Below, in pieces: positions 2 through 22,996 of a stretch of 23,729 nt of DNA (its first letter is position 1; every line of letters begins with the position of its first letter). The notes beneath the pieces were generated by a model that did no database searches, was not told the origin of the DNA, and worked only from the letters and a program-made list of their open reading frames with translations. The position numbers were made by a program, and so were the translations under genes. The stretch is taken from IMG/VR virus record IMGVR_UViG_3300002231_003432, positions 1-23,729 of that record; one strand, 5' to 3'. Origin of the DNA: a virus.

Positions 2-559
2 ATGGCAACACTTGTTAACACTGTAAGAGAACATCTTAAGGAAGGTCATACAACACTAGTAGTAGTTCCAGGAATTCAACTAGTAGAACAAACATATACC
101 GATTTTTTATCTTATGGCATAGACAAAGAGATAATATCAAAATGGAGTGGAAATAATAAATACAAAAACACTCCAATAATTATAGCATCAAGCTCTATTT
201 TACAAAGTAAAAAAACCGACAAAACAACATATGAAAATACAGACTTATTATTATTTGATGAATGTTTAAAAAAGGGACAAAAACTAAGAACTGTTAACGG
301 GTTAAGAAATATAGAAGATATACAAATAGGGGATTTAGTTTTATCCTATAATGATAAGACAAATGTTAATGAATATAAAAAGGTAAACAAAACATATAAA
401 AACATGATAAAAAGTAAATCTTACAAACACTTTTTGAAAATAACATTAGAAAGTGGGGATAAAATAGAGGTAACACCAAACCATAAAGTTTTTACTAGGA
501 ACAGGGGATATGTAAGAGCAGACGAATTAAAAGAGGATGATGATATTAAAATACTTTAG
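2..559 (+). CDS. uvsW: UvsW-type DNA helicase, N-terminal part (5' truncated) fused to N-terminal half of a split intein
   Basis: The first 87 visible residues match the first RecA-like domain of a superfamily 2 helicase: a LVVVPGIQLVEQ strand (motif Ia region) and LLLFDE, the start of motif II. T4 UvsW unwinds branched recombination and replication intermediates and R-loops. At position 263 the reading enters an intein: Cys1 followed by about 98 residues with a block A-like start, a GDLVLSYND strand and a block B TPNH motif (TxxH). It ends at TAG 557-559, and further in-frame stops follow, so the intein really stops here. The rest of the helicase begins at 1482 and rejoins as DE|CH, restoring a DECH box. 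The true start and the Walker A motif lie upstream of the window; the apparent first Met is internal. Without trans-splicing this product would lack most of the helicase. Confidence 0.9.
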   Translation: MATLVNTVREHLKEGHTTLVVVPGIQLVEQTYTDFLSYGIDKEIISKWSGNNKYKNTPIIIASSSILQSKKTDKTTYENTDLLLFDECLKKGQKLRTVNGLRNIEDIQIGDLVLSYNDKTNVNEYKKVNKTYKNMIKSKSYKHFLKITLESGDKIEVTPNHKVFTRNRGYVRADELKEDDDIKIL

Positions 560-574
560 GTATTGTTCTAGTAA

Positions 575-591
575 ATTCAATCGAATTGAAT
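575..591 (+). promoter_or_regulatory. Inverted repeat upstream of the GIY-YIG endonuclease gene
   Basis: ATTCAAT (575-581), a 3-base CGA loop and ATTGAAT (585-591) form a perfect 7-bp inverted repeat in the only non-coding gap of the first fractured gene. It ends 10 bases before the endonuclease ATG at 602, where no clear Shine-Dalgarno is seen. It could be an RNA hairpin controlling endonuclease translation or a protein binding site. AT-rich palindromes also arise by chance. Confidence 0.35.
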
Positions 592-601
592 AAGTATTTA
601 T

Positions 602-1384
602 ATGAAAAGAAAATACTACATATATGTATATTTAGACACTAGAAAGGAAGGGAGTTTTGATTATAAAAACTATAAATTTGTTTTTGAACCATTTTATGTT
701 GGCAAAGGTTTTGGTAATAGAATGTATTCACATTTAAAGTTATTAGACGAATCAAATAAATTTAAAAATTCTATTATCAAAAAAATTTATAATAACGATA
801 AAGAACCAATAATTATAAAATTGTTTGATGGTTTAAATGAAAACGAAGCTTTAAGATTAGAGAGTGATATTATAAAATGTATAGGAAGACGAGATATGGG
901 GAATGGGCCTTTAACTAATTTAACAGATGGTGGGGAAGGTATATCTGGTTTTATTTTTACTGAAGAACAAAAGAGGCGTATGGGTAGATTAAAAAAGACT
1001 CTTTATTTAGGAGAAGGAAATCCATTCTATGGTAAACACCACACAAGTAAAACAAAAGAGAAAATTAGTAATGCACATAAAGGGAAAAAATTAACAAAAG
1101 AACATGTTAAAAAAATTATAAAACATTTGAATAATGGTTGTGGAGAAAAGAATAATATGTTTGGAAGAGTTGGAAAAAACAACCCAAAAAGAAAAACATA
1201 TAAAATAATCAATCCAAACGGAAAAGAATATGTTATATATGGCACAATATCACACGATATAAAAATTTTTTGTGATAAACATAATATATCTAAACGATCT
1301 TTATATAGGACACTTCAAGACTATAACTATAATATAACTAAAGGCAAAACAAAGGGTTGGAAACTTAGATATGTCCAAGATTAA
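602..1384 (+). CDS. GIY-YIG homing endonuclease with NUMOD3-type DNA-binding repeats
   Basis: This 260-residue protein starts with a GIY-YIG nuclease domain: YYIYVYLD at 5-12, FYVGKG at 31-36, conserved Arg40, a metal-binding Glu near 87 in LRLESDII, and a TNLTDGGEG segment near 105-113. Residues 139-163 (GNPFYGKHH then SKTKEKIS) are a NUMOD3 motif, with a degenerate second copy around 183-196. The C-terminus (200-255) looks like a helix-turn-helix DNA-binding module. Such SegA/I-TevI-like enzymes cut intein- or intron-free alleles to spread their element. The gene stands between the two halves of the uvsW intein. Its stop overlaps the next start by 14 bases (1371-1384). No strong ribosome binding site precedes the ATG, and an inverted repeat lies just upstream, so expression may be restrained. 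No in-frame link to either intein half exists. Confidence 0.88.
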   Translation: MKRKYYIYVYLDTRKEGSFDYKNYKFVFEPFYVGKGFGNRMYSHLKLLDESNKFKNSIIKKIYNNDKEPIIIKLFDGLNENEALRLESDIIKCIGRRDMGNGPLTNLTDGGEGISGFIFTEEQKRRMGRLKKTLYLGEGNPFYGKHHTSKTKEKISNAHKGKKLTKEHVKKIIKHLNNGCGEKNNMFGRVGKNNPKRKTYKIINPNGKEYVIYGTISHDIKIFCDKHNISKRSLYRTLQDYNYNITKGKTKGWKLRYVQD

Positions 1385-2263
1385 AAAAATAGAATACATA
1401 AATAGAAACAATGAAGATGTTTATAATATTTCTGTAGAGAGCAATCATAATTATTATGCTAATAACATTTTAGTTAGTAATTGCCATAAACTTAGAAAGG
1501 GAAATAAGATTAATAAAATTGTTTCTAATATAAAAACCAAACATAAATTTTCCTTCACTGGTACAATGCCAGAGAACAAGATTGATGAGTGGAACATCAT
1601 AGGTCAGTTCGGACCAATCCTAATGAGGAAAACCTCAAAAGAATTACAGAACGATGATTTTGTGAGTGATGCACTTGTACAAGTTCTTAGAATCAAATAC
1701 AAGAAACCTTTGGTCTATAAATATCAATCAACATTTCTAGACCCAACGGCAAGGTATGATGAAGAATGTGAGTTCATTTACAATCACCCCTATCGAAATA
1801 AGGTCATAGCAAAAGCTTAGCTCATAAGGTTAGCAAAAACATGCTTGTCTTAGTAGATAGGATTGAGCATGGTGAAACGTTGACAGCGGAAATAAAGAAA
1901 CATAGTAAGAAAAAGAAAGTGTATTTCATTCGCGGAAGTGTAGAAGTAGATGATAGGGAAAAGATTCGTAGAATCATGGAAACCAACGACAATGTCGTTT
2001 GTGTTGCCATAACATCTATTTTCAGTACTGGCATTAACATAAAGAATCTACATTACATCTTATTTGCAAATGCTGGCAAAGCCAAAATTAAGATAATCCA
2101 GTCAATCGGACGTGGATTGAGATTACATGAGAACAAAGACATGCTAATCATATTTGACATTAGCGATAGATTAGAGTATTCTAATAAACATCTATCTAAG
2201 AGGTTGTCTTTGTACAACAAGGAAAAGATTAAATATGCCATCGAAGAAATTATCGAAAAATGA
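1371..2263 (+). CDS. uvsW: C-terminal intein half fused to the C-terminal part of UvsW helicase (one frame change near 1812)
   Basis: Residues 1-37 are a C-intein: a DVYNISVE strand (block F) and NNILVSN (block G) before Cys+1. The helicase then resumes as CHKLRKGNK, followed by motif III SFTGTMP. The frame stops at TAG 1818-1820, but the protein clearly continues one frame over (LAHKVSKNMLVLVDRIEHG) with FSTGINIKN (motif V) and QSIGRGLR (motif VI), ending at 2263. One extra A in the run at 1811-1814 would restore IAKSLAHKV, so a one-base deletion in the sequence is the simplest reading; a real frameshift mutation or recoding is possible. The ATG at 1371 lies inside the endonuclease gene (14-base overlap) with GGAAA upstream, suggesting translational coupling. 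The 3' end overlaps gene 55. Confidence 0.88.
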
Positions 2264-3938: not shown

Positions 3939-4775
3939 TAAAATAGGATTAGGTCTTATTACATGTAACGCCCAAGATCGATTAGAACAGAGCCTTCCTT
4001 GGTTCCAGAAGTAGATGAGATGGTCATCATTAACGATGGTACTCCATATGAGAATTCTGTGTATGGAGATAAGGAAGTTATTCAACATCCTAAGAACAAG
4101 GGTGTAGGAATTAGTAAAAATGATGCTATGCGCTATCTTGTACAGCATGACTGTTCACATATCTTCATAATGGAAGATGACGTTCTTATTCAGGATGAGA
4201 ATGTATTTGAGCAATACATTAAGACCGCAGAGGTAAGTGGTATCTGGCATATGAATTATGCGCTTCAGGGTCCAGCTAATAGAACACAGAAGGGCAATGC
4301 TCCTATGTTCATTCAGGAGAGAGCTAACTTCGACCAGGATTCACCACCAAACCCAAGACAGATCGTTGAATACGAAAACGGATTGGACGTAGCACTGTAT
4401 CCAAACTGTGTAGGTGCATTTTCATACTTCTTGAAGAGTGTCATCAAGCATGTTGGATATCATGACGAGCGTTTTCATAACGCATGGGAACATGTAGAGC
4501 ATACATACAGGATTATTAAGGCTGGTCTTCATCCTCCTTTCTGGTGGTTCGCTGATATCGCTGATAGTTGGAATTATCTTGACGATATCGAAGGATGTAT
4601 TGAGAATAGTGCCATCGCAAAGACAGAAGAATGGAATCAAAACCTACAGGAAGGAATGGCTTGGTACTCTCATAAACATGGTTGGATACCACAGCAGACT
4701 CCAGACACTCCACCACAAAACGTTATGGCTATTCTTGAAAACATTGAAAAGACATATGCAAGGAAAGTTTTGTGA
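3931..4775 (+). CDS. Glycosyltransferase, GT2-like (one frame change near 3998)
   Basis: The protein begins IGLGLITCNAQDRLEQSL, a GT-A nucleotide-sugar binding start, and continues with MVIINDGT, a GVGISKNDAMRYL segment and MEDDV (a DXD-type metal/nucleotide-sugar motif). Further on are aromatic-rich acceptor-side segments (FHNAWEHVEHTYRIIKAG, PPFWWFADIADSW). It would transfer a sugar from a nucleotide-sugar donor; the acceptor is unknown. The frame starting at 3931 stops at 4012-4014, while the rest runs in the next frame from about 3996. One missing C in the TTCCA at about 3992-3996 would restore LPWFPEVDEM, so a one-base deletion is likely. The ATG at 3931 overlaps the preceding small gene, with GAGAAGAAG upstream. 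This is the first gene of the glycan island. Confidence 0.75.
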
Positions 4776-10320: not shown

Positions 10321-11302
10321 ATGAACTATCTAGTAACAGGAATAACAGGATTCGCAGGACCACACTTAACAAACCTTCTTCACAAAGAAGGACACAAGGT
10401 TTTTGGTCTAGTTCGTGGAAGTAATGGAATGGAAACGGATATCTTGGACGTTGTCCCTGCCGAAACCTTCAATGATATCACTTTTGTATATGGAAACTTA
10501 ACAAGCTATAACGCACTTCAGCGTGTAGTTCAAAAAGAATAGGTTTGATGGTGTGTTCCACCTTGCAGCACAGTCTCATCCACCAACTTCTTTTGAAGAC
10601 CCACTGGACACACTTAACAACAATGTTATGGGCACAGCTAATCTGATTCAGTGCATAACAGAGATGCAGCCAGAATGCAAACTAATGTTTTGCTCAACAT
10701 CAGAAGTCTACGGCAACACTGGCAAGGATGGTAGAAAGATAACAATCGATAATAAAATTCTTCCGTCAAATCCTTACGGTGTTTCAAAAGCATCTATTGA
10801 TCTCTATGTTCAAGAGCGTGTAACAAATGGCAAACTCAACGCATATATAACTAGAGCGTTCTCACACACTGGTCCAAGAAGAGGTAAGAAGTTTTCTATC
10901 TCTTCCGATGCATACCAGATAGCTCGCATGGTTAATGGTCAGCAGGACAAGGAACTTCTAATTGGAAATCTAGATTCAGTTAGAGTGGTGGTTGATGTTA
11001 GGGATATTGTTAACGCATATTATCTATTGATGATCAACAATAAGTCCACTGGTGGCATCTTTAACGTATGTGGAGATGAGCCACACAAGATGAGATATTT
11101 CACCGATCTATTGGTTGAGGTTAGTGGTCTGGAAGGCGTTGAATATAAGATTCATGATCCATTCTGGAGACCAATTGACATTCACTATCAGGATGGTGAT
11201 CGTAAAGAATTAGTAGAACTCACAGGCTGGAAGCCAGAGTATGATATCAGAACAACCATGGTCGATCTTCTCGACTATTGGGTAAAGAAGACGAGCGAAT
11301 AA
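10321..11302 (+). CDS. NAD(P)-dependent GDP-mannose dehydratase/reductase-like enzyme (one frame change near 10540)
   Basis: This is an extended short-chain dehydrogenase: TGITGFAG (residues 7-14) is the NAD(P)-binding TGxxGxxG, followed after the frame change by FHLAAQSHPPTSFEDP, an STSEVYG segment and YGVSK (catalytic YxxxK). RAFSHTGPRR matches the GDP-mannose 4,6-dehydratase / GDP-4-keto-6-deoxymannose reductase (GMD/RMD) group. Such enzymes make GDP-deoxyhexoses (fucose, rhamnose). Frame 1 stops at 10540-10542 and the protein continues one base later. Dropping one A from the five-A run near 10533-10537 gives VVQKNRFDGVFHLAAQ, so a homopolymer insertion is likely. AAAGGAGA precedes the ATG. 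Which of the two steps it catalyses is not settled; the length (about 325 residues) is nearer RMD. Confidence 0.82.
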
Positions 11303-16961: not shown

Positions 16962-18292
16962 TGAGTCCTAAATTTAAGATGCCTATAAACAATGCTCCTA
17001 TGGGGCAACCACAGCAGCCACGTCCACAAGCTCCACAAAAGCCTGGAGTGATGTACAAACCAACTAATGTTGGTGTTCCTTTTGCACCTATGGGTATGCC
17101 AATTGGTGTCCCGCAAGCAGCCATGGTTGGACAACAAAGAGTTGGAGGTGGTGGAACACCTCTTCCAATACCAGGAGCAAACCTATCTCGTGCAGTAAAT
17201 TACTATGCCGACTATGGTGGTTGTGGTTTCTGGAGAATGATCTGGCCAGAACTTCTGGTTAATGGTTATCAGAAGGCAATCATAAATGGCCTTACAACTA
17301 TGGTTTTAGATGAACGTTTCTATGGTGGTTTAAAAGCAGTTAGACTTCAAAGACAAGCCACTCCAGAGCAGCTTAAGTTTGTTAACTTCTTGAGAAGAGC
17401 ATCAGAGAAATTTGATTACAAAATAATATACGAAATAGACGATATTATCTTCAAAGATGATATTCCTGATTTCAATCGTTGCAAGGTTGCATTCGAAGAT
17501 GATAAAATTCTTCAGAGTGCATTGTCTATCATGCAACAAAGTGATGAGATTTCTGTTACGTGTGAGTACATGAAAGATTACTACAAACATAAAACTGGAA
17601 ATAATAACATTACTGTTATCCCTAACTACGCACCAAAGATGTGGGCAGATGGTTATTATGACAAATCTCTGATATCCAGAAATTATGATAAGTTTAAGCA
17701 GCGTCCAAGGATTGGATATTGTGGATCAGGAACACCATATTGATGTCACAAATAGAACTGGACAGCAAGATGACTTTACACATATTGTAGATCAGATTAT
17801 CAAAACACGCAGGGACTTCCAATGGGTTATGATGGGATGTTACCCACTTCCTCTTAAGCCGTTTGTTGATAATGGTGAGATTGAGTTGATATCTTGGTCT
17901 ACAATTCTTGAATATCCAAAGGCAATGCATAATCTTAATCTCAATGCAACGATAGCACCATTGGTAGATTGTCATTTTCAACAGAGCCAAGAGTAACATC
18001 AAGTTTCTTGAGGCTGCTTATCAGGGACTTCCTGGTGCCTATCAGGATATGGTGACATACAAAGACGCACCAGTAAGGTTTAAGACTGGTAGATGAGATG
18101 GTTGACCAGCTTAAGAATCTTCTAAAGGATAAGTCTTACTACATGAAGATATCAAAACAGAGTCGTAAGTACGCTGATACAATGTGGCTTGATGATCATC
18201 TAGATGAGTATGTAGAATTGTACATGAGTGATTATGGTGATGCCACTAGAAAGGCTATCCTTAATCGTAACCCAGAACAAAAAGTAGGTTAA
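16961..18292 (+). CDS. GT4-like glycosyltransferase with Pro/Gly-rich N-terminus (three frame changes)
   Basis: The first 70 residues are low-complexity, rich in Pro, Gln, Gly and Met (PMGQPQQPRPQ, GVPFAPMGMPIG), probably disordered. Then comes a GT-B-type protein: YEIDDIIFKDD, VTCEYMKDYY, ITVIPNYAP, RPRIGYCGSGT (start of the donor domain) and NRAKSNIKFLEAAYQGLPG, which matches the GT4 donor-binding segment (K...EAxxxGxP). The frame changes at about 17731 (one C too many), 17976 (one T too many) and 18091 (one A too many). All three are apparent insertions, and the conserved sequence runs through all of them. Together they give a protein of about 440 residues. Either the sequence has errors here or the gene is decaying. 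It sits between genes 46 and 43. ATG 16961 overlaps the gene 46 stop, with GAGGAA upstream. Confidence 0.75.
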
Positions 18293-18663: not shown

Positions 18664-18947
18664 TGGCAAATTACGCAAAAGCCTATGTTGATATAACAGA
18701 AAACGGATATGTTGTAACTGGGATGTACAAGAATAATGGAACCAAGAAACAATATGTCTTTAGAAAAGCTAGTGAAATGAGAAAATGGCTCAAGGATAAT
18801 CTGGCACCTACAGGTGAAGTAGAAAGATTCTCCGATGCACTTGACAATGAATCTGAAAGTGGTAGAATAGATGCCGTTAGTAACAAAATAAACATGGTAG
18901 GATATTTACAATCAGTATTTGGCACAAAGGATACGTCTAGTGTATAG
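18663..18947 (+). CDS. Hypothetical protein (94 aa), paralogue of the previous gene
   Basis: The start overlaps the preceding stop (TAATG) and has GAGGAAG upstream. The first 45 residues share the NGY ... YVFRKASEMRKWLKDNL pattern with the upstream protein, so the two probably arose by duplication. The remainder has an acidic linker and a hydrophobic end (INMVGYLQSVFGTK). It overlaps the likely GTG start of gene 43 by 8 bases, so its translation may be coupled to the polymerase. No family is recognised. Confidence 0.65.
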   Translation: MANYAKAYVDITENGYVVTGMYKNNGTKKQYVFRKASEMRKWLKDNLAPTGEVERFSDALDNESESGRIDAVSNKINMVGYLQSVFGTKDTSSV

Positions 18948-21060
18948 AAGCATTCATTACAACATACCAAAGAAATATGTCAGATTGGGAACATGGGACG
19001 AAAACGGAAAACGTGTCTCCGTTAATGTTCCTTTCAGCCCATACATATATGTAGAGAACGAATCCAATGCGGATGCCGTTTCTATTTTCAACACAAATTT
19101 GGTAAAGAAATCATTCAAGAATTCTTGGGATCGTGATAAGTACATCAAGAATTCTGGCCTCAAGAGAATTTTCTATAACATACCAACAGAGCAGCAATTC
19201 TTGATCGATACATTTGGATCAAAGAACAGCGAAGCAGAGTTCTCTGAAAATCCTCTTAAGATAAACTTCCTTGATATTGAAACATATTCTCCAGGAGAAT
19301 TCCCTGATCCAAAGATTGCACCAGACCCAATCAACATCATAACGATATTTGATTCGCTAACAAAGAAGTTTTACACATGGGGAACTAGCGGAAAAAATGG
19401 TGGTGATTATACTGGACCAGCTAATGTTGTTTACACACAGTGTAAATCTGAAAGCGACATGCTGATAAAGTTTTTGAACTTCTGGAAGTCTGATTATCCT
19501 GATATCGTTTCAGGATGGAATTCAGAAGGATTTGATATTCCTTATCTAATTAATAGGATCAAGAGCATCCTTGGTGAAGATGCAGCCAATGTACTTTCTC
19601 CCGTCAAGCAATTATATTGCAGAGAAAACGTAGTTACCAAATATGGTAAGCGCGAAGATAGATGGTACATCAAAGGATTGTGTCATTTGGATTACATGCA
19701 CGTTTACAAAACGTTTACAAAGGATAAGCGTGAACGCTATACTTTGGATTTTATTGGAGAGACTGAATTAAAGATTAACAAGAAATACGTTCCAGCATCA
19801 GACCTACCAGCATTCGCAGATAATGACTGGCAAGGATTCTGTGAGTACAACATTCAGGATGTTAACATTCTTGTGAGGCTGGAGGAGTCTCTACACTTCC
19901 TTGATATCGTCCGTAAGCTAGCATATATGGGCTACACGAACTTTGAACAAGCACTTGGTACAATTGCCATCGTTACAGGAGCAATGGCTTTAAAGGCTCT
20001 TGAGAAGGGAATGATTATACCTACATTCCCAAACAAAGCGTCTAGCAACTATGAAGGTGGATTTGTGAGAGACCCACAACGCGGTCTAAAGGATAGCATC
20101 GTAAGTTTTGATGCTAACAGTCTATATCCTAATACCATTATCAGTACGAACATTTCTCCTGAAACAAAGGTTGGTAAGATCATTAACAAGTCAGATACGA
20201 ATGTAGAAATACGTTTGATCAACGGAAAGATTTACGACCTCACACATGAAAAGTTCTTTGAGTTTGTTGAGAAGGAAAACATCGCAATAACCAAAGCCAA
20301 GATCATGTACTCTCAGAAGACGAAGGGATTCTGCCCTGAACTTCTAGATGGCATCTATAGCGAACGTTTGTTAAACCAGAAGGAACTCAAGAGACATAGA
20401 AGAGATATCAGAAAGTGTAAAGATGGTTCTGATAAGTACAAAGAACACGAAAAGTCTATCGTAGAATTGGATGTCATGCAGTACACATTGAAGATTCTTA
20501 TGAATCGCTTGTACGGTGCATTTGGAAACATACACAGTCCATTCTATGACATTGATGCAGCAGCTAGTGTTACATTAACTGGTCAAGCTTGTATTAAGGA
20601 AGCAGCAGAAATAACAGATCGCTTCATGAAGAGTGAGTATGATATTGACGAAGATTGCACAATTTATGGAGATACAGATAGTTTTGTTGGTGATACGTTA
20701 ATTCGAACAAATCATGGAATAATAAAAGCAGAAGATTTGTATAATATGTATAATATCAAACCAAATACAGATAAACATGGACATGAACTAAAAGATATTA
20801 CAGATTTAGAATGTTTAACGTATAATGATTCCAATAAAAGTGTTGAATTTGGAAAGGTTAAGCGATTAATTAGACATAGAACATCCAAGAAAAAATATAA
20901 AATCAAGGTAAACGGAAAAGAAATAATCATGACAGAGGATCATGGATGTATGGTATTACGAAAGGATAAATTGATTCGTCTATCTCCAAAAGATATTAAA
21001 AATACTGATAAAATGATAAGTATTTATGGTGAGACTGGTACAAAGCTGGTATCCCAATAG
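18940..21060 (+). CDS. 43: DNA polymerase gp43, N-terminal 580 residues, fused to N-terminal half of a second split intein
   Basis: This is a family B replicative polymerase. Proofreading motifs counted from GTG 18940 are DIE (112-114), NSEGFD (194-199) and YNIQD (303-307). Polymerase motif A is DANSLYP (391-397), motif B KILMNRLYG (from 518), and motif C YGDTD at 576-580. Directly after, at 20680, the intein begins (Ser1, SFVGDTLIRTNHG block A; MTEDHG block B with TxxH) and ends at TAG 21058-21060 after 126 residues. The catalytic motif C is therefore split, and the second half starts at 22159. The start is uncertain: GTG 18940 has AAAGGA at a good distance; TTG 18919 is in frame but has none. 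Trans-splicing is needed for a complete enzyme. Confidence 0.92.
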   Translation: MYRSIHYNIPKKYVRLGTWDENGKRVSVNVPFSPYIYVENESNADAVSIFNTNLVKKSFKNSWDRDKYIKNSGLKRIFYNIPTEQQFLIDTFGSKNSEAEFSENPLKINFLDIETYSPGEFPDPKIAPDPINIITIFDSLTKKFYTWGTSGKNGGDYTGPANVVYTQCKSESDMLIKFLNFWKSDYPDIVSGWNSEGFDIPYLINRIKSILGEDAANVLSPVKQLYCRENVVTKYGKREDRWYIKGLCHLDYMHVYKTFTKDKRERYTLDFIGETELKINKKYVPASDLPAFADNDWQGFCEYNIQDVNILVRLEESLHFLDIVRKLAYMGYTNFEQALGTIAIVTGAMALKALEKGMIIPTFPNKASSNYEGGFVRDPQRGLKDSIVSFDANSLYPNTIISTNISPETKVGKIINKSDTNVEIRLINGKIYDLTHEKFFEFVEKENIAITKAKIMYSQKTKGFCPELLDGIYSERLLNQKELKRHRRDIRKCKDGSDKYKEHEKSIVELDVMQYTLKILMNRLYGAFGNIHSPFYDIDAAASVTLTGQACIKEAAEITDRFMKSEYDIDEDCTIYGDTDSFVGDTLIRTNHGIIKAEDLYNMYNIKPNTDKHGHELKDITDLECLTYNDSNKSVEFGKVKRLIRHRTSKKKYKIKVNGKEIIMTEDHGCMVLRKDKLIRLSPKDIKNTDKMISIYGETGTKLVSQ

Positions 21061-22158
21061 GAGATGTTATGAAACAATATATAGAATGTAAGATTTGTGG
21101 AAAAAAACTAAAGCGGATAACACATTCACATGTTAAGACACATAATATAACAATTAAACAATACCAAGATAAATTTGGGTATGACCCATCTATATTAACT
21201 TGTGAATCATTATTAAATAAATTTTCTGTTACTGAGAAGTCTATGATTAATAAATATGGTGAAAAGGATGGTAAACATAGGTGGAATGAATATAAAGAAA
21301 AACAGAGAGTAAGTAATACATATGAATATAAAAAACATAAACATGGCTGGACAATGGAACAGTTTAATTCTTATAATTCATCAAGAGCGGTAACAAAAGA
21401 AAATTGTATTAAAAGACATGGAAAGGTCAAAGGACTTTCCGTATATAATGAATATATTAGAAAACAACGATATAGTGGATGTACAATAGAGTACTTTATT
21501 GATAAATATGGCGAACCTGATGGGATTCGTGAATATAATAGGGTTTGTAGAGAAAAGGGACATACCATTGATAATTATATACGAAAATATGGAATACTAA
21601 GTGTTAAAAAATATAATGAATATAAGAATAACCAAAGACCATTTTATTCAAAGATATCGCAAGAAATGTTTGATGAAATATACGATAGTATAGAATACAC
21701 GAAATGTTATTACGCTAAATTAAATAAAGAATATGGGATATATCTACCACATTCTAAACAATACACGTTTATAGATTTTTATGTCTTAGATTGTAATAAG
21801 GCCATAGAATTTTATGGAGATTATTGGCATTGCAATCCTAATATATATGATGAAAAATATGTACATACAGTTTACAATAAACCTGCAAAAGAGGTTTGGG
21901 ATAGCGATAATAATAGAATTTCTGAATTATATAACCATTATGGGATAGATACATTAGTAATATGGCAACAGGATTATATTGATAATAAAAACGATACAAT
22001 AAATAAATGCTTGGAGTTTTTAAATGATTAGGTATAGCATAGATGAAATAGAATCCATTGAATGTATTGGTGAGTTTGAAGATGAATATGTATATGATAT
22101 AGAAATGGATGATACTACAGATCATACATTTTTTGCTAATGATATATTAATACACAAC
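20680..22158 (+). mobile_element. Split intein with embedded Vsr-like (EDxHD) homing endonuclease gene, inserted in gene 43 motif C
   Basis: The N-intein (20680-21057), an endonuclease gene (21069-22031) and the C-intein (22024-22158, 45 residues ending LIHN) interrupt the polymerase. Removing it joins YGDTD to SVYITID, the expected family B motif C. Ser1 and Ser+1 are the nucleophiles; block G (HN) is canonical. The endonuclease Shine-Dalgarno TAGGAG includes the N-intein stop TAG. The endonuclease stop overlaps the C-intein ATG by 8 bases. YGDTD|S is also a known insertion point of contiguous polymerase inteins in archaea. Confidence 0.92.
21069..22031 (+). CDS. Vsr-like (EDxHD) homing endonuclease with Zn finger and tandem DNA-binding repeats
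   Basis: Residues 7-25 are a CxxC...HxxxH zinc finger (CKICGKKLKRITHSHVKTH) like the MucR-type modules on phage homing enzymes. About residues 62-190 contain four related repeats: KYGEKDGKHRWNEYKEKQR, RHGKVKGLSVYNEYIRKQR, KYGEPDGIREYNRVCREKG and KYGILSVKKYNEYKNNQR, probably successive DNA-binding units. The C-terminal domain has FIDFYV (Asp236), AIEFYGDYWHCNP with Glu247, Asp251 and His254, and VIWQQDY, the Vsr-related EDxHD signature. Such enzymes cut alleles lacking the insertion. TAGGAG ends 5 bases before the ATG. The gene is free-standing between the polymerase halves. A comparable arrangement is described for fractured genes in marine metagenomes; this repeat-rich middle is notable. Confidence 0.88.
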   Translation: MKQYIECKICGKKLKRITHSHVKTHNITIKQYQDKFGYDPSILTCESLLNKFSVTEKSMINKYGEKDGKHRWNEYKEKQRVSNTYEYKKHKHGWTMEQFNSYNSSRAVTKENCIKRHGKVKGLSVYNEYIRKQRYSGCTIEYFIDKYGEPDGIREYNRVCREKGHTIDNYIRKYGILSVKKYNEYKNNQRPFYSKISQEMFDEIYDSIEYTKCYYAKLNKEYGIYLPHSKQYTFIDFYVLDCNKAIEFYGDYWHCNPNIYDEKYVHTVYNKPAKEVWDSDNNRISELYNHYGIDTLVIWQQDYIDNKNDTINKCLEFLND

Positions 22159-22996
22159 AGTGTATATATAACTATTGATCCTATATTGCAGCTATCTAAT
22201 ATCCCACTCTTGAATGATAAGGGAGAAATCTACAAAAGAAGTTTACGAGATAGCTGAAAAACTAGAAGATAGACTCAATAGTGAGATAACTAACTGGGCA
22301 GTTAAAAGTTGTAATGTCAAAGACCCTAGATTCAAGTTCAAAAGAGAAACAATTTGTAACTCTGGACTATTTCTTGAAAAGAAGAGATACATACTTCATG
22401 TCTTAGATAAGGATGGGTTGCCACCAAAAGAAGATAAGGAAATCAAATACACTGGTGTTGAAGTAGTAAGCATCAAGATTCCTAAAAAGGTCAAGCCTCT
22501 TATCAAAAACATATCCAAGGTAATGCTTAAGACAAGGGATAAGAAAAAGACGGATGAAGCTTACAAAGAAGCATATGAAGAATACATCAAAATGGATGTA
22601 GAAGATATTGCAACTCCAATAGGTGTCAATAAGTATGAAGAGTATGAAGCAAAATCAAATGGATTTGTAGCTGGTAAGAAAACACCAGGACATACAAAGG
22701 CTGCAATCATGTACAATCATTTGCTAAGAACTCTAGACTTAACGAGTAAGTATGAACTTATAGAATCTGGTGATAGCATCAAGACGTTTTATACTGAGAA
22801 GAACAAGTATAATATCAAAGGTATGGCATTCAAGGATATGTATCCTAAAGAGTTTGGCATTAATATCGATAAGATAGCGATGTTCAACAAGAATATCACA
22901 CCTGCTGTAGAACGACTCTATGAAGTCGTTGGATGGACACTAAAGAATCCTACAAAAGAAACAGAATGTGATCTGTTAGAACTTTTGGGAGCTTGA
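22024..22996 (+). CDS. 43: C-terminal intein half fused to the C-terminal part of DNA polymerase gp43 (one frame change near 22229)
   Basis: Residues 1-45 are the C-intein (block F EYVYDIEMDD, block G NDILIHN), followed by Ser+1 and the polymerase sequence SVYITIDPILQLSN. The frame stops at 22255-22257, but the conserved sequence continues one frame over as STKEVYEIAEKLEDRL, then EKKRYILHV (the KKRY motif that contacts template-primer) and the thumb, ending LLELLGA at 22996. One A too many near 22227-22229 (GAAATC) explains it: GESTKEVYE is then continuous. With the N-terminal part, the spliced enzyme would have about 858 residues, near T4 gp43 (898). GGAG precedes ATG 22024, which overlaps the endonuclease stop. 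Confidence 0.9.

What the first reader, a model, noticed from the sequence alone, without database searches (positions are those of the whole stretch)
2..2263. Fractured uvsW: helicase DECH box divided by a split intein with a GIY-YIG endonuclease gene in the gap
Seen: helicase FDE followed by an intein N-half (Cys1, TPNH) ending in several stops; a free-standing GIY-YIG/NUMOD3 gene; then a 37-residue C-intein whose Cys+1 resumes the helicase as CHK. Joining gives DE|CH, helicase motif II. Known: fractured genes with split inteins are described in marine metagenomes, mainly in DNA replication and repair enzymes. Inference: uvsW is active only after trans-splicing, and the GIY-YIG enzyme (rather than the Vsr-like type) is the invader.
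Basis: partly seen in the sequence, partly recalled or inferred. Interest (0 to 1): 0.85.

Follow-up and report, generated by a model that had tools for sequence, protein, structure and literature searches.

The report
Phage helicase gene broken by split intein
A DNA-repair helicase gene of an uncultured virus of bacteria is cut in two by a mobile element that carries a DNA-cutting enzyme, and the two protein halves are predicted to stitch themselves together; related viruses, some of them grown in laboratories, carry the same break with other cutters, with none, or healed.

Summary
uvsW stops at DE with an N-intein (263-556, Cys1), a GIY-YIG/NUMOD3 gene follows (602-1384), and a C-intein (1371-1481) hands back to CHK; DE|CH is helicase motif II. 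This is a fractured gene of the published kind, and a GIY-YIG gene in such a gap is published too (AceL NrdHF). Added here: an allele series at exactly this UvsW site. Empty: L036 and cultured Salmonella phages STML-198, CGG4-1, Melville. Fractured with a TnsA-like gene: nine environmental alleles and cultured phages S16 and PM2, annotated as two 'DNA helicase' genes. Fractured with an HNH gene: L134. Split without nuclease: L227. Healed to one continuous mini-intein: L125-L132. The window is the only GIY-YIG case I found at this site. Fractured L133 and the healed alleles share 99-100% of intein DNA while their uvsW flanks are 62-93% identical, so the intein moved recently; L133 differs by one nuclease block between 8-bp repeats. 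Best reading: a mobile split intein whose nuclease is swapped or lost. Splicing and cutting are untested. The window's C-half has a frame break, probably a sequence error.

The parts
2..262 (+). UvsW N-extein, 3' part (5' end cut off by the contig end), ends ...LLLFDE
   Evidence: ResIII 5.8e-10; 59% identical to intein-less L036
263..559 (+). N-intein (98 aa, Cys1, block B TPNH) and stop codon
   Evidence: Intein_splicing 1.1e-9; solved relatives NrdJ-1 2.7e-8, gp41-1 3.1e-4
560..601 (+). 42-nt spacer with a weak hairpin; no Rfam family at gathering threshold
   Evidence: fold z-score -0.41 for 555-615
602..1384 (+). free-standing GIY-YIG homing-endonuclease-like gene with NUMOD3 (260 aa)
   Evidence: Pfam LEM-3_GIY-YIG 2e-11, NUMOD3 6.7e-8; phrog_314 homing endonuclease 2.4e-19
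1371..1481 (+). C-intein (37 aa, ends VSN); its ORF start lies inside the last 14 nt of the GIY-YIG gene
1482..2263 (+). UvsW C-extein beginning CHK; reading frame changes near 1811-1814
   Evidence: 62 and 76% identical to L036 before and after the break

Best explanation
A mobile split-intein element sits between the codons for E and C of helicase motif II (DE|CH) of uvsW in a T4-like virus. The gene is read as two proteins. The intein halves bind, Cys1 and Cys+1 carry out a class 1 trans-splicing reaction, and a full UvsW with an intact DECH box results. Neither half has all ATPase motifs, so activity should depend on splicing. The gap at the usual nuclease position of inteins is a docking place for a free-standing homing nuclease gene that would cut the empty DE|CH site and copy the whole block in by repair. 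Over time this nuclease is swapped (TnsA-like, HNH, here GIY-YIG) or lost, and after loss the halves can be re-joined to a continuous intein. Shown by sequence: anatomy, empty site, exact element borders in relatives, nuclease diversity, recent horizontal spread of relatives, continuous alleles that differ from a fractured one by the nuclease block. Inferred: splicing, cutting, homing by this GIY-YIG enzyme, the direction split to continuous, and that the GIY-YIG gene replaced a TnsA-like one.
For: Anatomy. Empty allele L036 in one frame. Element exactly 1227 bp in S16 and CF-SP2, absent from STML-198, CGG4-1, Melville, UoN_LG358_1 and CkP1 at the same codon border. Nine environmental fractured alleles with a TnsA-like gap gene (Pfam on 4 of the 9; the other 5 by similarity), one HNH, one split without nuclease. 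Intein DNA 99-100% identical among L125, L127, L130-L133; L125 and L130 differ in 3 of 138 intein codons but in 58 of the next 100 extein codons, 40 of these synonymous. L133 carries the nuclease block between TTTTTATG repeats where the continuous alleles have one copy. The window intein falls (100/98 support) in the clade whose other fractured members all carry TnsA-like genes. A continuous relative folds as a Hint domain, pLDDT 90.9, best solved match gp41-1, TM 0.82. The element is 25.5% G+C against 36.1% for the window; 3 of 451 sliding windows of that size are as low or lower.
Against: No splicing or cutting was measured. The window's C-half has a frame break, so this copy could be dead. 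All 16 inteins of this site in the alignment lack the usual penultimate His (Ser in 15, Ala in L135). Recent mobility is shown for relatives, not for the window's own element. The nuclease tree and the intein tree agree only in part. S16, unlike the window, shows no G+C difference between element and gene. The model of the GIY-YIG protein is poor overall (pLDDT 65).
Confidence: 0.82

Rival explanations
1. The fracture is an assembly or sequencing artefact: indels break one continuous large intein with a built-in nuclease.
For: The contig has other broken frames in conserved genes: uvsW near 1811-1814 and a glycosyltransferase near 3999, both intact in L036; PolB after its C-intein.
Against: Both intein halves and the gap gene look complete (L044 matches residues 5-259 of the 260-aa gap protein). 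Relatives from other samples and cultured phages show the same three-ORF order with other nucleases. Gap nucleases of unrelated families cannot arise from indels.
Confidence: 0.04
2. The halves work without splicing, by binding to each other, as with split NrdA of Aeh1, gp43 of phage 25 or T4 topoisomerase.
For: Such split enzymes that assemble without splicing are described in the T4 review PMC2988022 (passages seen).
Against: The break lies inside motif II, and Cys1, TPNH, the terminal Asn and Cys+1 are all kept; in L125 and L130-L132 the same intein is one chain with the helicase and must splice or stay in the active site.
Confidence: 0.07
3. A dead copy: the element has decayed in this virus and UvsW is lost.
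For: Frame break in the C-half.
Against: Splicing residues and GIY-YIG residues (Y6, Y8, Y32, G34, E87, invariant in 9 of 9 rows) are intact; breaks of the same kind occur in other genes of the contig, which points to sequence errors.
Confidence: 0.1
4. The GIY-YIG gene is not the homing nuclease of this intein but a chance insertion of a free-standing phage gene into an already split and idle intein.
For: Of the eight best relatives looked at (L043-L050) none stands in a recognisable intein gap (L047 is cut by its contig end); of 80 relatives fetched, 1 had any match to the UvsW-type intein pieces, far from its GIY-YIG gene (L074; other kinds of intein would be missed). Only one such UvsW allele was found.
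Against: GIY-YIG genes also sit in split-intein gaps of reductase genes (L006, L008, L017; host gene named by eye) and of a second UvsW site (L138), and in the published AceL NrdHF (PMC7891396, passages).
Confidence: 0.3

Closest known systems
Fractured genes with split inteins (Dassa et al. 2009, NAR 37:2560; paper not held; seen only in reference lists and citing passages, abstract recalled)
   Same: enzyme gene broken by a split intein with a free-standing endonuclease gene in the gap, in phage DNA
   Different: whether UvsW is among its enzyme types could not be checked; the series of gap states plus a continuous state at one site was found here
AceL NrdHF split intein (PMC7891396, passages seen)
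   Same: fractured gene with a GIY-YIG gene in the gap, 98-aa N-intein
   Different: class 3 intein (Ala1), in a ribonucleotide reductase; the window intein has Cys1
gp41-1 and NrdJ-1 split inteins (PDB 6qaz, 8ubs)
   Same: gp41-1 is the best fold match of the continuous relative, NrdJ-1 the best sequence match of the window N-intein
   Different: other host genes; those inteins end in His-Asn (recalled), this one in Ser-Asn as in cyanobacterial DnaE split inteins (recalled)
Pseudomonas jumbo phage MIJ3 PolB split intein with HNH gene (PMC6892783, passages seen)
   Same: fractured replication gene of a large phage with an endonuclease ORF in the gap
   Different: DNA polymerase, not UvsW; HNH, not GIY-YIG
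T4 SegE, free-standing GIY-YIG endonuclease between inh and uvsW, target uvsW (table row in PMC2988022)
   Same: GIY-YIG nuclease associated with uvsW
   Different: no intein; sits beside the gene; S16 gp113 (annotated only 'homing endonuclease', same inh/uvsW position) is only weakly similar to the window enzyme (pairwise E 0.002)

Membership tests
Fractured gene (split intein plus free-standing endonuclease gene) | host enzyme gene broken into two ORFs | tested here: met
Fractured gene (split intein plus free-standing endonuclease gene) | N- and C-intein halves at the break | tested here: met
   Pfam Intein_splicing on both halves, C-half below cut-off; alignment with relatives
Fractured gene (split intein plus free-standing endonuclease gene) | separate endonuclease ORF in the gap | tested here: met
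   602-1384, own start and stop, GIY-YIG + NUMOD3
Fractured gene (split intein plus free-standing endonuclease gene) | protein trans-splicing | not testable with these tools
   needs expression
Class 1 intein | nucleophile at residue 1, TxxH in block B, terminal Asn, nucleophile at +1 | tested here: met
   Cys1, TPNH, Asn, Cys+1
Class 1 intein | penultimate His (usual, not universal) | tested here: not met
   Ser in the window and in 14 of the 15 other inteins of this site, Ala in L135; S16 and PM2 have His
Class 1 intein | Hint fold | tested here: met
   met for the continuous relative L130: pLDDT 90.9, gp41-1 TM 0.82; the window halves themselves were not folded
GIY-YIG homing endonuclease | GIY-YIG domain with its Tyr, Tyr, Glu and a DNA-binding tail | tested here: met
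   Pfam; Y6, Y8, Y32, G34, E87 invariant in 9 of 9; NUMOD3. Fold search weak: best hit 9u75, a 5hmC-specific restriction endonuclease, E 1.9e-4, TM 0.29
GIY-YIG homing endonuclease | cuts the allele without the element | not testable with these tools
   needs purified protein
UvsW (SF2 helicase) | UvsW-type sequence and T4-like gene neighbourhood | tested here: met
   phrog_16259 and phrog_9690 DNA helicase; tblastn hits annotated uvsW; same order uvsW-gp55-gp47-glycosyltransferase as in L036 (gp names by eye)
Vsr-like/EDxHD fractured-gene nuclease | Vsr-like nuclease in the gap | tested here: not met
   the uvsW gap ORF matches GIY-YIG/NUMOD3 and homing-endonuclease families only

The most novel reading that the evidence does not exclude
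Gene fracture by split inteins is reversible and modular: in UvsW the nuclease in the gap is exchanged between three unrelated families, and a fractured allele has been healed, by loss of the nuclease block between 8-bp repeats, into a cis-splicing mini-intein that then spread between viruses.
Probability: 0.5. Interest if true: 0.75.

Novelty: new member of a known kind. Interest (0 to 1): 0.6.

Why it matters
Fractured genes were proposed as a missing link in how split inteins arise (recalled from the 2009 abstract). At this one site most of the steps co-exist: empty, continuous, split with three nuclease families, split without nuclease. The intein is 99-100% identical between viruses whose helicases differ widely, which is the mark of recent spread. 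Cultured Salmonella phages differ at uvsW by exactly this insert besides point changes (S16 with, STML-198 without; 90-100% identical within 300 bp of the site), so homing, trans-splicing and re-joining can be tested in ordinary phage crosses. In the public records these halves are annotated as two helicase genes and a hypothetical protein.

Tried and rejected
Group I intron as the cause of the gap: no Rfam match at gathering threshold in the window. Regulatory element before the GIY-YIG gene: hairpin no better than shuffles (z -0.41); sigma-70-like sites at chance level (17 found, 15.0 expected) and no terminator; TATAAATA 2 found, 2.8 expected. SegE as the source of the GIY-YIG gene: only weak similarity of the S16 gene in that position; T4 SegE itself was not compared. 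I first called the relatives' gap genes 'EDxHD' in scripts and notes; Pfam showed TnsA-like, so that label is withdrawn. Alignment A4 of intein halves with a continuous intein was misaligned by MAFFT and was not used; A5 was used for the fold instead. The census looked at L004-L229 and counted 74 loci as uninterrupted, of which L123 and L124 are in fact fractured, so 72 of 74; not all are UvsW orthologues (9 have DEAH, one DETH, one DEVH), and three uvsW-like loci (L025, L151, L200) could not be assigned. The nuclease stop overlaps the C-half start by 4-38 nt in 13 of 13 fractured alleles with a nuclease: window, nine TnsA-like, L134, S16, PM2 (for L039, L124 and L134 I used the upstream in-frame start given, since the script picked a later one). 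I considered this as coupling that protects the nuclease, but overlapping genes are common in these phages and I ran no base-rate control. Two further scans for another GIY-YIG allele found none. In the phage collection I opened only some of the hits (51 records, 59); the Lak, Vibrio and Dickeya hits were not examined.

Full report
OBSERVATION. The window is bases 1-23729 of a 28153-base IMG/VR contig. ORF 2-559 is the end of the N-half of a UvsW-type helicase followed, right after DE, by a 98-residue N-intein that begins with Cys and has TPNH in block B. ORF 602-1384 is a GIY-YIG protein with NUMOD3. ORF 1371-1820 begins with a 37-residue C-intein and resumes the helicase as CHK. Joining DE and CH gives helicase motif II. 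Two points were missed: the missing gene start is only the contig end, and the C-half changes frame near 1811-1814 while the relative L036 runs through. A glycosyltransferase near 3999 is broken in the same way and the PolB C-part also changes frame, so sequence errors are the likely cause; I cannot prove it. The element is 25.5% G+C against 36.1% for the whole window.

THE EMPTY SITE. In L036, whose gene order matches the window, uvsW is one ORF of 484 codons with ...LLIVDECHK... uninterrupted. N-extein, C-extein and the last part are 59, 62 and 76% identical to the window. Among L004-L229, 74 loci have one alignment that crosses the site; 72 are uninterrupted and the other two, L123 and L124, are fractured alleles mis-scored by that test. 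Not all 72 are UvsW orthologues.

THE ALLELE SERIES. At the same DE|CH border I found these states with both intein sides visible. TnsA-like PD-(D/E)XK gene in the gap: L037, L039 (L040 looks the same; L147 is the same contig), L042, L123, L124, L133, L135, L136, L137; Pfam was run on four of these nine (L037, L042, L133, L137; for L042 at 26.3 bits just under the cut-off of 26.5), the others are placed by similarity. HNH-like gene: L134 (phrog_655 and phrog_12434; no Pfam match). No nuclease, 86-nt gap: L227, a 5.3-kb contig binned with a Flavobacterium. GIY-YIG: the window only. One continuous ORF, no nuclease: L125-L132, eight contigs from eight data sets (translated for L125 and L130-L132; L126-L129 have the same frame and spacing, and the same match to L133). 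L038, L041 and L148 are cut by contig ends and were left out of these counts. A DNA-pattern scan and a further N-intein scan turned up 7 intein-bearing uvsW loci, all of contigs seen before.

CULTURED PHAGES. Salmonella phage S16 and relatives (STP4-a, AKM_NP4, UTK0003, SEA1, CF-SP2) and Proteus phage PM2 carry the same fracture. The gap ORFs of S16 and PM2 resemble the TnsA-like ones (best PM2 to L037, 43% over 132 residues). The records opened annotate 'DNA helicase', 'hypothetical protein', 'DNA helicase'. Alignment of S16 and CF-SP2 with STML-198, CGG4-1, Melville, UoN_LG358_1 and CkP1 shows an insert of exactly 1227 bp between the GA(C/T)GA(G/A) and TG(C/T)CA(C/T) codons. Within 300 bp on either side S16 is 89-100% identical to STML-198, CGG4-1 and Melville, and 72-98% to UoN_LG358_1. 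There is no clear gradient of identity toward the site and no G+C difference in S16, so these flanks do not by themselves prove homing. Yersinia phage fHe-Yen9-02 has a DE|CH split in another helicase with the gap ORF on the opposite strand.

RECENT SPREAD AND HEALING. Between L125, L127, L130, L131, L132 and L133 the intein DNA is 99-100% identical in every bin. For pairs of different viruses the uvsW sequence next to the borders is 82-91% identical and is down to 61-65% at 150-450 bp downstream in the most distant pairs; L133 against L125 stays at 84-93%. Exceptions in the set: L125 and L127 are near-identical throughout, and L130-L132 are 99-100% identical downstream of the site. L125 and L130 differ in 3 of 138 intein codons, against 26 of the last 71 N-extein codons (18 synonymous) and 58 of the first 100 C-extein codons (40 synonymous). 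Purifying selection cannot keep silent sites alike inside only the intein, so this is recent transfer. L133 has the nuclease block where the others have none; TTTTTATG stands at both ends of the block and once in the continuous alleles, and it holds the C-half's start codon. L132 and L133 come from the same data set. Continuous alleles are nested among split ones, so loss of the block and re-joining is the simplest direction. Insertion of the nuclease into a continuous intein is not excluded, because only one clade shows both forms and the root of the tree is not inferred.

WHICH NUCLEASE CAME FIRST. The window intein groups with L037, L039, L123, L124 and L125-L133 at 100/98, but its place inside that clade is open (53/15). 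TnsA-like genes occur on both sides of the tree. Their own tree recovers L037+L039, L135+L136+L137 and S16+PM2 as the intein tree does; L123 and L133, sisters by intein and each other's best nuclease match (58%), are not sisters in the nuclease tree (weakly supported), and L042 is placed differently. I take TnsA-like as the older resident and GIY-YIG in the window as a replacement, at about 0.65. Of the eight nearest GIY-YIG relatives looked at (L043-L050) none stands in a recognisable intein gap; they lie among other phage genes, L047 at a contig end (by eye).

STRUCTURE AND CHEMISTRY. The continuous intein of L130 was modelled with pLDDT 90.9 and pTM 0.84; the best solved match is gp41-1 (6qaz, TM 0.82, E 3.9e-11), with NrdJ-1 at rank 10 and Npu DnaE at rank 33. 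By sequence the window N-intein is closest to NrdJ-1 (2.7e-8). The split lies between the N-terminal blocks and block F, where nucleases sit in other inteins (PMC6801210, passages). The terminal Ser-Asn is unusual but is also found in cyanobacterial DnaE split inteins (recalled). The GIY-YIG model is usable only for about its first 110 residues.

WHAT IS KNOWN. Dassa 2009 is not held; I know its abstract only from memory and the paper from citations. A GIY-YIG gene in a fractured gene is published (AceL NrdHF, PMC7891396, passages). A PolB split intein with an HNH gene is published (MIJ3, PMC6892783, passages). A search for UvsW with intein gave 7 papers (listing); passages of two of them were seen and report no UvsW intein; the other five were seen as listing only. 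Three more searches (listings only) showed no title or abstract start on it. This is not proof that it is unreported: most subscription papers and Dassa 2009 itself were not searched.

VERDICT. A real fractured uvsW, a new member of a known kind. The allele series around it, not the window alone, is what raises the interest.

Noticed in passing
window 18919-22996: Second fractured gene: PolB with a Ser1 N-intein after YGDTD (20680-21057), a gap ORF 21069-22031 (phrog_22677, function unknown there; Pfam ROS_MUCR 2.5e-6; Vsr-like only by my reading of its motif, recalled) and a C-intein ending ILIHN|S (22024-22158); the C-extein changes frame near 22214-22257. Its halves share only about 29 and 37% with the uvsW intein halves.
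   Followed up: partly
L227 1338-3883: UvsW in three ORFs: an apparent early split intein at motif I (SPTS|C ... HN|SGKS; by eye, no Pfam intein match for it) and the DE|CH split intein, with no nuclease gene in either gap; two trans-splicing events would be needed for one helicase.
   Followed up: partly
L138 3049-5798: uvsW split at a different site (TGTLSGMK|C, near motif III) with a NUMOD3 / phrog_314 homing endonuclease gene in the gap, GIY-YIG by eye.
   Followed up: partly
L005, L006, L008, L009, L017: Reductase-like genes (named by eye) fractured with GIY-YIG genes at the split; both intein halves seen in L006, L008 and L017, only the N-half in L005 and L009; L017 has further split inteins in the same gene.
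   Followed up: partly
L036 4741-6312: The intein-less uvsW relative carries a whole intein in the next gene (gp55-like sigma factor by eye), at NFINY|C...N|TYKEEM.
   Followed up: no
L037 1610-2479, L042 3929-5014 and others: A TnsA-like PD-(D/E)XK family (PF08722, phrog_15427) as gap gene of split inteins; conserved WE, DF and E(I/V)(K/R)P. A search for TnsA-like with intein or homing endonuclease listed 20 of 362 papers, none of the 20 with the term TnsA-like.
   Followed up: partly
window 5979, 10542-10553, 17685-17743: Further apparent breaks of reading frames, seen by eye in the ORF list, in genes that look conserved, suggesting indel errors in the contig; the UvsX gene also reads an X just past the window end.
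   Followed up: no
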